Shown here: piece by piece, positions 35,530 to 39,925 of the stretch
Layout: every line of letters begins with the position of its first letter
How positions within the stretch are numbered: the first letter of the stretch is position 1
Virus record (IMG/VR): IMGVR_UViG_3300010370_000044
Location: 1 to 56,665 of that record
Reading direction: 5' to 3' (one strand)
Length of the DNA: 56,665 nt
From: a virus
Translations under genes and position numbers: made by a program
Notes under the pieces: model-generated
The model's input: the letters and a program-made list of their open reading frames with translations, nothing else
The model's database searches: none
What the model was told of the DNA's origin: nothing

Positions 35530-35544
35530 GGGTGTATAGTTTAG

Positions 35545-35585
35545 GAACTGGTTGTCATCGAAGACCACGGCATATCCGCCAGTTC
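35545..35585 (-). ncRNA. Mini tRNA-like leader element G
   Basis: 41 nt preceded by CCCCC. Stem GAACTGG/CCAGTTC; hairpin CGG-ATATG-CCG; T-arm-like hairpin with a TTCGAT loop closed by GTC/GAC. Ends 15 nt before the ATG at 35529 and starts 7 nt (including CCCCC) after the preceding stop. Confidence 0.55.
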
Positions 35586-35787: not shown

Positions 35788-35806
35788 GGTGTTTAGGTTT
35801 GATGAG

Positions 35807-35850
35807 GAACCGAGGGCAGTATCGCTCTGCCTTAACCACTCTCTCGGTTC
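35807..35850 (-). ncRNA. Mini tRNA-like leader element F
   Basis: 44 nt. Stem GAACCGAG/CTCGGTTC (8 bp, both sides changed relative to other copies), middle AGAGTGGTTAA like a tRNA D-arm, T-arm-like GGCAG-AGCGATA-CTGCC. Ends 19 nt before the ATG at 35787. Confidence 0.55.
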
Positions 35851-36056: not shown

Positions 36057-36076
36057 GTTGATTAGGGTTTGTTGAG

Positions 36077-36122
36077 GAACTGGCCTCGGTGTCGCTCCGA
36101 GATCGGCCGTGCCTACCAGTTC
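36077..36122 (-). ncRNA. Mini tRNA-like leader element E
   Basis: 46 nt. Stem GAACTGG/CCAGTTC, small hairpin GGC-ACG-GCC, T-arm-like TCTCGG-AGCGACA-CCGAGG. Ends 20 nt before the ATG at 36056. Aligns closely with element D (AGGNNNGNCCGA middle). Confidence 0.6.
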
Positions 36123-36390: not shown

Positions 36391-36409
36391 AGGTTTGAGG
36401 TTTGATGAG

Positions 36410-36452
36410 GAACTGCCGAAGGAGTCGAACCTTCGTGAGACCATCGCAGTTC
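36410..36452 (-). ncRNA. Mini tRNA-like leader element B
   Basis: 43 nt, preceded by CCCCC. Acceptor-like GAACTGC/GCAGTTC (7 bp), a 10-nt GATGGTCTCA in place of the D and anticodon arms, and T-arm CGAAGG-TTCGACT-CCTTCG with a canonical T-loop. Ends 19 nt before the ATG at 36390. Element A has the same plan with different paired bases. Confidence 0.65.
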
Positions 36453-37369: not shown

Positions 37370-37384
37370 TGTGTTAGGTTTAAG

Positions 37385-37432
37385 GAACTGCCTTGGGTCA
37401 CGAACCCAGTGCCATCGGGATGGTGGCAGTTC
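37385..37432 (-). ncRNA. Mini tRNA-like leader element C
   Basis: 48 nt, preceded by CCCCC. Stem GAACTGCC/GGCAGTTC (8 bp), hairpin CCAT-CCCG-ATGG, T-arm-like TGGG-TTCGTGA-CCCA. Ends 15 nt before the ATG at 37369. Confidence 0.6.
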
Positions 37433-37841: not shown

Positions 37842-37855
37842 GGTAATAGGTTTAG

Positions 37856-37901
37856 GAACTGCGGTCGGTTTCGCTCCGACTTCGGTCACACCTCGCAGTT
37901 C
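37856..37901 (-). ncRNA. Mini tRNA-like leader element D
   Basis: 46 nt, preceded by a C-run. Stem GAACTGCG/CGCAGTTC (8 bp), hairpin GGT-GTG-ACC, T-arm-like GTCGG-AGCGAAA-CCGAC. Ends 14 nt before the ATG at 37841. Confidence 0.6.
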
Positions 37902-38364: not shown

Positions 38365-38383
38365 AGGTCTAGGTTTTGATAAG

Positions 38384-38426
38384 GAACTGGGAGCGGAATC
38401 GAACCGCTCTACGACCATCCCAGTTC
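38384..38426 (-). ncRNA. Mini tRNA-like leader element A
   Basis: 43 nt, preceded by CCCCC. Acceptor-like GAACTGG/CCAGTTC, 10-nt GATGGTCGTA, T-arm GAGCGG-TTCGATT-CCGCTC with a canonical T-loop. Ends 19 nt before the ATG at 38364. Same plan and length as element B with every T-stem pair different: strong support for a selected RNA fold. Confidence 0.65.
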
Positions 38427-38635: not shown

Positions 38636-38956
38636 TTAGTTTTTGAATTGAGATAAATCAATCTTGATGTCGTTTTTTGGTCTGAATGTGGGGAAGAGTT
38701 GGTATGATAACTCAACAATCTCTTCGGTAATCTCATACGTTTCATTGTAGAAGCCATAATCAAACCAAGTAAGACCGCTTGTGAACAACTCATTTTTGAT
38801 GAATTCGGTGACCGCTTTTGTAGTTACCACTCTGCCATTATTGGCTGATGATATCAAACAAATTGCTTTCTGAATCATTTCGGCATCAATTAGGTAGGAG
38901 ATTGAAATTTTCGCTACCAATTGGCAATCTGATTTGCGCTGATAATTTGCTTTCAT
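38636..38956 (-). CDS. Hypothetical 106-aa protein
   Basis: Starts MKANYQRKSDCQLVAKISIS; helices (AEMIQKAICLISSAN, TKAVTEFIKNELFTSG) then YNETYEITEEIVELSYQ. No family recognised. Its leader is unusual: a hammerhead ribozyme ends 12 nt before the ATG, so the mature message probably begins with the ribozyme. Confidence 0.72.
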   Translation of the reverse strand: MKANYQRKSDCQLVAKISISYLIDAEMIQKAICLISSANNGRVVTTKAVTEFIKNELFTSGLTWFDYGFYNETYEITEEIVELSYQLFPTFRPKNDIKIDLSQFKN

Positions 38957-38968
38957 GTGATTAGGTTT

Positions 38969-39022
38969 AAAGTTTCGTCCTACTGGGACTCATCAGTACG
39001 GCGATTATCAGCCGTAGACTTT
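38969..39022 (-). ncRNA. Type III hammerhead ribozyme
   Basis: Minus strand, 5' to 3': stem III strand AAAG, cleavage triplet GUC (cut after C, between 39017 and 39016), stem I hairpin UACGGC/GCCGUA with an 8-nt loop, core CUGAUGA, stem II GUCC/GGAC, core GAAA, then CUUU closing stem III. All invariant core positions are present. Cleavage would release the upstream RNA and leave a 5'-OH message for the gene at 38636. Activity is predicted, not shown. Confidence 0.9.
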
Positions 39023-39023
39023 T

Positions 39024-39600
39024 TATCCAACCTATCGGAGAATGGACTGACGATGCGACACCGCATCCGTTTACACCCTCGTTCCGACTCCGGAAGAGCA
39101 TTCGATAGTCAGCGTACACGCCTTGGGGTTGTCTCTCCCCGACTATCCCCCTTTAGGCAGACATCACGTCTGCTTTCAATACACCGAAGGGGTAGTGGTT
39201 TCAAAAGTTTAGAGCCATTGAGTGGGGCTGACCGAGTCGGGCCGTAGCCGTAGGTCGGTGGTCATCCGAGCATCCTGATTGGTACTGACGGAGGAGAGGG
39301 CGGTAGGTGACTACTGATGCCTTCGCTCGTTTCCCGATGCCATCGCCGTGCATTTATCGTGGTTTGGTGTTCCCGAAGGAGTGCGTTACCCTAACACGTT
39401 GTGGCGAACCTTTGAAAGAACTTCGTCTAGCCGTTTCCGTTAGACAATGCAAGAATACGACGGCCCAAACCGATTTCGAACACTAGACCCCGACTTTTTT
39501 TAAAAAACAGGGGTATGCACTTAGAAACGGATACGTGTCTGTATTTAAATCTTAGGGATTTGTGGCAGATGTGCCTTATGAAAAGGGGGCAGTTCGGGGG
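39024..39600 (-). ncRNA. Large structured non-coding RNA candidate
   Basis: About 580 nt with no convincing gene on either strand. Minus-strand folds include GCAGAC/GTCTGC, a junction ATAGTC...GACTAT enclosing GGGG/CCCC and GCG/CGC hairpins, TTCCG/CGGAA, GATGCG/CGCATC, and UNCG tetraloops in cUACGg (39246-39251) and cUUCGg (39375-39380). UNCG loops appear only in the leftward reading. It starts 4 nt after the stop of the wHTH gene with the recurring CCCCCGAACTG and ends at the hammerhead. No known RNA family recognised. Confidence 0.5.
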
Positions 39601-39604
39601 ATTA

Positions 39605-39925
39605 CTAGAGCCGATAATTCCGTAGATAGGAACGCAAAGCCGAAAGGTACTCTCTCCCCATAGTGGTGATACCATACTGAACCCCATCCTTCGAAACAAG
39701 TCCGCAGTCTATCAAAGCACGGAGACTATTGGCAACGTACGATGCATCCTCAGACTTCCCATACTTGCCGACAAGGGATCGAACCTGATTGAACCGAAGA
39801 GACACACGGCGTTTCAACAGCACGAGAATTCCCAGTTCGTGGTGGCCCAAGGGATGAGTCCCATACCGAGCAGATATCTTCCGAACCGCAGTATCGAAAA
39901 CAAGGGCAAATTTGTCTAGTGTCAT
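39605..39925 (-). CDS. Winged-helix DNA-binding protein
   Basis: A 106-aa protein: helices HHELGILVLLKRR, a recognition-like segment NQVRSLVGKYGKSEDASYVANSLRALIDCGLV, a wing QYGITTMG and a dimer helix. This is a MarR/PadR-like winged helix by pattern. It is the first gene of the leftward small-gene array and may regulate it. Start ATG 39925 follows the gene-free control region. Confidence 0.75.
   Translation of the reverse strand: MTLDKFALVFDTAVRKISARYGTHPLGHHELGILVLLKRRVSLRFNQVRSLVGKYGKSEDASYVANSLRALIDCGLVSKDGVQYGITTMGREYLSALRSYLRNYRL

What the first reader, a model, noticed from the sequence alone, without database searches (positions are those of the whole stretch)
38969..39022. Complete type III hammerhead ribozyme at the head of the small-gene array
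CUGAUGA, GAAA and a GUC cleavage triplet occur in order with three stems (I 6 bp, II 4 bp, III about 5 bp). Cleavage leaves the ribozyme at the 5' end of the next message, 12 nt from its ATG, the same place taken by the tRNA-like elements elsewhere. So self-cleaving and tRNA-like modules appear interchangeable in this array.
Basis: partly seen in the sequence, partly recalled or inferred. Interest (0 to 1): 0.85.

Follow-up and report, generated by a model that had tools for sequence, protein, structure and literature searches.

The report
Ribozyme swapping with mini-tRNA cutting sites
In a family of viruses of Bacteroidota bacteria, a self-cutting RNA (hammerhead ribozyme) sits just before the first gene of a long string of tiny genes, and in related viruses the same spot is filled by a miniature tRNA look-alike, which suggests that both do one job: cutting a long message into gene-sized pieces.

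Summary
On the minus strand, 39022-38969 is a complete type III hammerhead: intact core, GUC site, stems I/II/III of 6/4/5 bp, cleavage 39017/39016, 12 nt before an ATG. It scores 44.3 bits against Rfam RF00008 (E 3e-7), slightly below the curators' cut-off of 48.5. Ten orthologues settle it: 149/149 paired cells, 13 of 17 pairs with compensatory changes. The same ribozyme, unannotated, heads the small-gene array of all 68 database records of cultured Flavobacterium 'elemo' phages.

The array carries a family of 40-49 nt tRNA-like elements (acceptor stem plus T-arm, no D or anticodon arm; 78 distinct copies, 11 of 12 pairs covary), mostly 13-20 nt before an ATG. Hammerhead and tRNA-like element replace each other before orthologous genes (three BLAST-supported cases) and directly after the same structured leader RNA (L245, L246). 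Qualifications: the type III ribozyme is nearly always the head element, where it also cuts off a leader RNA; relatives add type I hammerheads, which stay on the upstream product, so the shared property is the cut rather than a 5' cap. Cleavage of either element was not tested; RNase P is inferred.

Clustered phage hammerheads were known; the exchange with tRNA-like cutting sites appears new.

The parts
38969..39022 (-). Type III hammerhead ribozyme (stem III 39022-39018 with 38973-38969; stem I 39016-39011 with 39002-38997; CUGAUGA core 38996-38990; stem II 38989-38986 with 38980-38977; GAAA 38976-38973)
39016..39017 (-). Predicted self-cleavage site, after the C of GUC (39017^39016)
   Evidence: position in the hammerhead; not tested experimentally
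38957..38968 (-). 12-nt spacer AAACCTAATCAC between ribozyme and ATG; resembles the leaders after tRNA-like elements (e.g. TAAACCTATTACC, TTAAACCTAACACA)
38636..38956 (-). First gene of the array, 106 aa, no known family and no homologue found in relatives
39023..39444 (-). Leader RNA upstream of the ribozyme (approximate extent), no same-strand gene over most of it, 78% identical to L226 over ~385 b; boxA-like AAGTTCTTTCAAAGG at 39423-39409, promoter-like TATTCTTG at 39457-39450
   Evidence: promoter and boxA are inferences from sequence
39605..39925 (-). Gene upstream of the leader, 106 aa, weak winged-helix match; similar-length (106-111 aa) genes in most relatives
   Evidence: HTH_45 E 0.0015, below cut-off
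38383..38426 (-). tRNA-like element 1 (acceptor stem + T-arm TTCGATT), 18 nt before an ATG
37855..37901 (-). tRNA-like element 2 (T-loop AGCGAAA, extra 3-bp hairpin), 13 nt before an ATG
37384..37432 (-). tRNA-like element 3 (T-loop TTCGTGA, extra hairpin CCATCCCGATGG), 14 nt before an ATG
36409..36452 (-). tRNA-like element 4 (T-loop TTCGACT), 18 nt before an ATG
36076..36122 (-). tRNA-like element 5 (T-loop AGCGACA), 19 nt before an ATG
35806..35850 (-). tRNA-like element 6 (GAACCGAG/CTCGGTTC acceptor, T-loop AGCGATA), 18 nt before an ATG
35544..35585 (-). tRNA-like element 7, imperfect T-arm, 14 nt before an ATG; identified by eye, not by the model

Best explanation
The feature is a functional type III hammerhead ribozyme that acts as RNA punctuation. 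The early or accessory operon is transcribed from upstream of a structured leader RNA through a long array of small genes. The hammerhead cuts the transcript between the leader and the first gene, leaving a 5'-OH message that begins with the folded ribozyme 12 nt before its ATG. At most other marked boundaries a miniature tRNA mimic (acceptor stem plus T-arm) marks the cut, most likely made by host RNase P at the 5' side of the acceptor stem. Either module can fill a boundary. Shown here: the ribozyme's structure, conservation and covariation; the tRNA-like family and its place before ATGs; replacement of one by the other at orthologous positions. Inferred: cleavage in vivo, RNase P as the enzyme, and the benefit (separate, 5'-protected, individually tunable messages).
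For: Covariation in all three stems with an invariant core; Rfam E 3e-7. The same ribozyme heads the array in relatives down to 51-57% terminase identity and in cultured Flavobacterium elemo phages with 28% terminase identity, in 68 of 68 records. tRNA-like family: 78 distinct copies, 98.2% of cells paired, 11 of 12 pairs covarying, 63 of 70 with an ATG of an ORF of 30 aa or more 8-25 nt downstream versus 16% of random array positions. Swaps: 253-aa PAPS-reductase-like gene, HHR in L228, tRNA-like in L230, proteins 92% identical; 59-aa gene, type I HHR in L225, tRNA-like in L243, 79%; 111-aa gene, HHR in L235, tRNA-like in L246, 37%. In a fourth pair (43-aa gene, L233 HHR, L232 another hairpin) the sequence after the element is homologous from its edge. 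The leader hairpin with constant GATTTATC loop is followed by an HHR in most genomes but by a tRNA-like element in L245 and L246. Precedent: clustered prophage hammerheads flank genes, cleave in vitro, and cleave when expressed in E. coli (PMC3088659). RNase P cleaves acceptor-stem/T-stem-loop model substrates, and 12 bp separate T-loop and cleavage site in tRNAs (PMC11143913).
Against: No cleavage data. The tRNA-like elements lack an encoded RCCA 3' end, 20 of 78 have AGCGA rather than TTCRA T-loops, and the element has one extra position between the two stems, so the RNase P site could shift or the enzyme could be another one. The type III ribozyme is concentrated at the head slot, which suggests a more specific role there than general punctuation. 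Not every gene boundary carries an element.
Confidence: 0.72

Rival explanations
1. The head ribozyme's main job is to give the leader RNA a defined 3' end, releasing a free noncoding RNA; trimming the array message is a by-product.
For: The type III ribozyme (or, in L245/L246, a tRNA-like element) follows a conserved structured leader, including a hairpin with a constant GATTTATC loop and freely varying stem. Head ribozymes are kept although the downstream gene changes.
Against: Internal boundaries without any leader carry type I hammerheads and tRNA-like elements in the same position relative to an ATG. The leader of the window and L226 is a different version without the GATTTATC loop.
Confidence: 0.25
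2. The elements act uncut, as folded 5' leaders that set translation or stability of each message.
For: Close, regular spacing to the ATG.
Against: Evolution preserves exactly the catalytic core and a GUC/GUA/GUU site, which a mere hairpin would not need. Type I hammerheads in the same slots leave almost no structure on the downstream message after cleavage (inference from the known fold).
Confidence: 0.12
3. The elements are DNA-level seams or mobile cassettes that promote shuffling of small genes, without an RNA function.
For: Near-identical tRNA-like elements stand before different genes, and gene order varies between relatives.
Against: RNA-specific conservation: covarying stems with fixed loops in both modules, one strand only, fixed distance to the ATG. 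Integron attC core boxes (recalled RYYYAAC/GTTRRRY) do not match the element ends.
Confidence: 0.06
4. A chance or decayed hammerhead look-alike.
For: Score under the Rfam gathering cut-off; energy z-score only -1; short A-U-rich stem III.
Against: Covariation in ten orthologues at the same place, 100% paired, and E 3e-7.
Confidence: 0.02

Closest known systems
Type III hammerhead ribozyme (Rfam RF00008) and the clustered prophage hammerheads of Perreault et al. 2011 (PMC3088659)
   Same: Core, cleavage triplet, open stem III; intergenic placement flanking small phage genes; proposed cutting of long phage transcripts.
   Different: Here the ribozyme shares its slots with tRNA-like elements and follows a conserved structured leader; the passages of that paper read here do not mention such a partner.
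Acceptor-stem/T-arm model substrates of RNase P (reviewed in PMC11143913)
   Same: 7-bp acceptor-like and 5-bp T-arm-like helix, 7-nt T-loop, no D or anticodon arm.
   Different: Natural, repeated, upstream of phage genes; no RCCA end; one extra position between stems; frequent AGCGA loops; cleavage unproven.
tRNA punctuation of polycistronic RNA (mitochondria, t-elements; from general knowledge)
   Same: tRNA-shaped units between genes mark the cuts.
   Different: Here the units are not tRNAs and self-cleaving ribozymes stand in for them.
Theta ribozymes of gut phages (PMC10879173)
   Same: Phage ribozyme connected with tRNA-type processing, partly in phages of Bacteroidota.
   Different: HDV-like fold proposed to trim the 3' side of real tRNAs; not described as alternating with tRNA-like elements.

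Membership tests
Hammerhead ribozyme, type III | Conserved core CUGANGA ... GAAA | tested here: met
   CUGAUGA and GAAA in order
Hammerhead ribozyme, type III | NUH cleavage triplet at the stem I/III junction | tested here: met
   GUC; GUC, GUA or GUU in orthologues
Hammerhead ribozyme, type III | Three helices, with 5' and 3' ends in stem III | tested here: met
   6/4/5 bp, supported by covariation in all three stems
Hammerhead ribozyme, type III | Database inclusion score (Rfam RF00008 gathering 48.5 bits; a curators' threshold, not a structural criterion) | tested here: not met
   44.3 bits, E 6.6e-9 / 3e-7; three orthologues also score below it, 31-39 bits
Hammerhead ribozyme, type III | Self-cleavage in Mg2+ | not testable with these tools
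   needs an in vitro assay
Hammerhead ribozyme, type III | Loop I-loop II tertiary contact for fast cleavage | tested here: inconclusive
   UGC/GCA complementarity seen by eye in L229 and L236 loops; no clear pairing in the window copy
RNase P substrate (tRNA-like elements) | Coaxial acceptor-T stack of about 12 bp with T-loop | tested here: met
   12 pairs (7+5, 11 covarying) with one intervening position, 7-nt loop; coaxial stacking itself is inferred
RNase P substrate (tRNA-like elements) | T-loop consensus UUCRA | tested here: inconclusive
   TTCGA in 41 of 78, AGCGA in 20, other 17
RNase P substrate (tRNA-like elements) | 3' RCCA | tested here: not met
   acceptor followed by C and then varied sequence; not strictly required by all bacterial substrates
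RNase P substrate (tRNA-like elements) | Cleavage by RNase P | not testable with these tools
   needs an enzyme assay
tRNA | D-arm and anticodon arm | tested here: not met
   absent; ARAGORN and the Rfam default scan find no tRNA in the window; hence tRNA-like, not tRNA

The most novel reading that the evidence does not exclude
A lineage of Bacteroidota phages uses a mixed RNA-cutting punctuation in which a self-cleaving ribozyme and a host-RNase-P-cleaved miniature tRNA are functionally interchangeable modules, placed gene by gene along a long small-gene transcript headed by a structured leader RNA.
Probability: 0.6. Interest if true: 0.87.

Novelty: new variant of a known kind. Interest (0 to 1): 0.77.

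Why it matters
What phage and bacterial hammerheads are for has been open since they were found in numbers. Exchange with an unrelated RNA whose most evident shared property is that it can be cut is evolutionary evidence that the function is transcript cutting. It gives a natural control (same gene, different cutter) and a cultured test system, the Flavobacterium elemo phages, in which the same ribozyme is present and unannotated. The tRNA-like family, to my knowledge undescribed, would be a new class of natural RNase P target candidates, and the leader RNA a further uncharacterised structured RNA.

Tried and rejected
Looked for homologues of the first array gene to track the ribozyme: none in viral contigs or in relatives' genomes, so the ribozyme does not travel with that gene. 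Near-identity search of phage records with the first 25 kb of the window: none. The tRNA-like pattern in genome contigs: none; models R1 and R2 in 297 Bacteroidota genomes: none at 1e-5 (strict filters, no positive control, so weak evidence). Distant terminase relatives in Bacteroidota genomes (L278-L282) carry neither module near the terminase, and four of those genomes give no tRNA-like match. A loose hand-written tRNA-like descriptor was too noisy (about 20 hits per shuffled window) and was replaced by a covariance model. Short blastn of the window's element and ribozyme against phage records gave only chance-level matches. Rfam gives no family for leader or tRNA-like elements. Literature searches for tRNA-like elements in phage mRNAs gave no precedent in the held library; subscription papers are not held. 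Considered and dropped: integron attC sites (end sequences do not match), retrozyme-like circular RNA (no such element around; two HHRs flanking one stretch occur in some relatives, not in the window).

Full report
Setting. The window is an IMG/VR virus record of 56,665 b. It encodes a terminase, portal protein, primase/helicase, RecE-like exonuclease and an integrase. The host is most likely a member of the Bacteroidota: the terminase relatives found in the genome collection are all in Bacteroidota (Owenweeksia, an uncultured Flavobacteriales bacterium, Prolixibacteraceae, Hymenobacter and an unclassified Bacteroidetes bacterium), and the nearest named phages infect mainly Flavobacterium and Cellulophaga. 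Between about 31.7 and 39 kb the minus strand carries an array of short genes.

Observation. The hammerhead is where the finding says and as described; it lies on the minus strand. It is the only one in the window. Rfam's type III model gives 44.3 bits, E 6.6e-9 in 201 b and 3e-7 in 9.3 kb, 4 bits below the gathering score, so default annotation misses it.

It is real. Terminase relatives (51-88% identity) contain the same ribozyme at the head of their own arrays. Aligning ten, all 149 pair cells are standard pairs, 13 of 17 pairs change on both sides, no shuffle reaches these values, and sliding the partners drops pairing to 30-44%. A model built from them finds further head copies in L249, L239 and L243/L244, some with altered cores (CCGATGA; CTGACGA plus an inserted U), and one in the cultured Flavobacterium phage elemoF (56.8 bits, CTGAAGA core, GUA site), 15 nt before gp59, the first gene of a minus-strand small-gene array next to divergent genes. 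The same 66 b are identical in 68 elemo phage records, with no annotation in the records listed.

The tRNA-like elements are real too. Seven stand in the window array. A covariance model from six of them found 86 copies (78 distinct) in relatives and a few other viral contigs: 98.2% of cells paired, 11 of 12 pairs with compensatory changes, 204 double-changed cells against 50 in shuffles. The anatomy is a 7-bp acceptor-like stem (mostly GAACTGN/NCAGTTC, then C), a 5-bp T-arm with a 7-nt loop (TTCGA 41, AGCGA 20 of 78), and a short middle (roughly 8-17 nt) that in about half the copies has ATGG or ATTGG and in others looks like a small hairpin; no D or anticodon arm. Sixty-three of 70 have an ATG of an ORF of at least 30 aa 8-25 nt downstream, against 16% of random array positions.

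Interchange. I grouped array proteins of relatives and labelled each by its upstream element. Three orthologous groups have a hammerhead in one genome and a tRNA-like element in another: a 253-aa PAPS-reductase-domain protein (L228 type III; L230 tRNA-like; 92% identity), a 59-aa protein (L225 type I; L243 tRNA-like; 79%) and a 111-aa protein (L235 type III; L246 tRNA-like; 37%). In a fourth pair (43-aa protein, L233 hammerhead, L232 a different hairpin) the sequences are homologous right up to the element. For the 253-aa gene the exchange came with a rearrangement of gene order, not a clean substitution in place. Independently, the head slot itself is exchanged: the leader RNA whose hairpin keeps a constant GATTTATC loop on freely varying stems is followed by a hammerhead in most genomes but by a tRNA-like element in L245 and L246. 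The sequence between element and ATG is of a genome-specific type shared by both modules, e.g. ...CACACACA(A)TG-type leaders after hammerheads and tRNA-like elements in L225.

The head slot is biased: it held a hammerhead in 14 of 16 distinct genomes where I could read it (hammerhead: window, L224, L225, L226, L228, L229, L232, L233, L235, L236, L237, L239, L243, L249; tRNA-like: L245, L246). Internal hammerheads in relatives are type I (stem I GGTTAA/TTAACC; L225, L232, L237, and by eye L247 and L251); these leave the ribozyme on the upstream fragment. What all modules share is therefore a cut between genes shortly before an ATG, not a structured cap on the following message. And the head cut also separates a structured leader RNA from the array.

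Mechanism. Shown: structures, conservation, position, exchange. From established knowledge: hammerheads cut themselves, leaving 2',3'-cyclic phosphate and 5'-OH; prophage hammerheads in clusters cut polycistronic transcripts in vitro and, for one cluster, when expressed in E. coli (PMC3088659); [quoted passage not shown] Inferred: the same happens here, giving separately ended messages. Hammerheads in unrelated viral contigs also often stand 10-40 nt before an ATG, so the cutting role may be general, with the tRNA-like alternative known so far mainly from this lineage.

Limits. No RNA data were available for this virus. The tRNA-like elements lack RCCA and have one extra position between their stems, so the RNase P assignment is moderate. 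The host assignment is by relatives. Literature was searched only in an open-access library, so absence of precedent for the tRNA-like family is provisional. Many relatives are fragments, so 'no hammerhead' in G009-G012 and G021 is not proof of absence. The shuffle controls for covariation do not remove shared ancestry; the partner-slide controls do, and agree.

Noticed in passing
window 38426-35544 (-); L224-L249, L255, L261, L265-L267: A family of 40-49 nt tRNA-like elements (acceptor stem + T-arm) before small phage genes, not in Rfam, with several middle-region classes including extra hairpins.
   Followed up: yes
window 39444-39023 (-); L225, L235, L237, L245, L246 upstream of the head element: Structured leader RNA ahead of the array; in many relatives a hairpin with constant loop GATTTATC on freely varying stems, plus GTAGTCNTGAGGC; boxA-like GTTCTTTRA near its start.
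   Followed up: partly
window 39599-39590 (-) and after the counterpart gene in L224, L226, L233, L236, L237, L245: The motif CCCCCGAAC(TG) follows stop codons even where no tRNA-like element is formed; meaning unknown.
   Followed up: no
L225 6807-6858, L232, L237 5246-5294, L247, L251: Type I hammerheads with near-constant stem I GGTTAA/TTAACC before unrelated genes; in L225 and L237 they closely follow CCCGAACTGC / CCCCCGAGCAGC, possibly a remnant of a replaced tRNA-like element.
   Followed up: partly
L249 11895-11946, L243 11610-11667, L239 3866-3922: Head hammerheads with altered cores (CCGATGA in L249; CTGACGA plus an inserted U before stem II in L243; an inserted U in L239); activity uncertain.
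   Followed up: no
NC_055853.1 17867-17919 (L287) and 67 further elemo phage records: Unannotated hammerhead (CTGAAGA core) at the head of the small-gene array in cultured Flavobacterium phages; a ready test system.
   Followed up: yes
L142: Five hammerhead-core pattern matches on one strand within 4.3 kb of one viral contig (92.7 kb).
   Followed up: no
L129, L144, L134, L152: Viral contigs, fetched by the hammerhead pattern, that also have tRNA-like matches, so the pairing may extend beyond the window's close relatives.
   Followed up: partly
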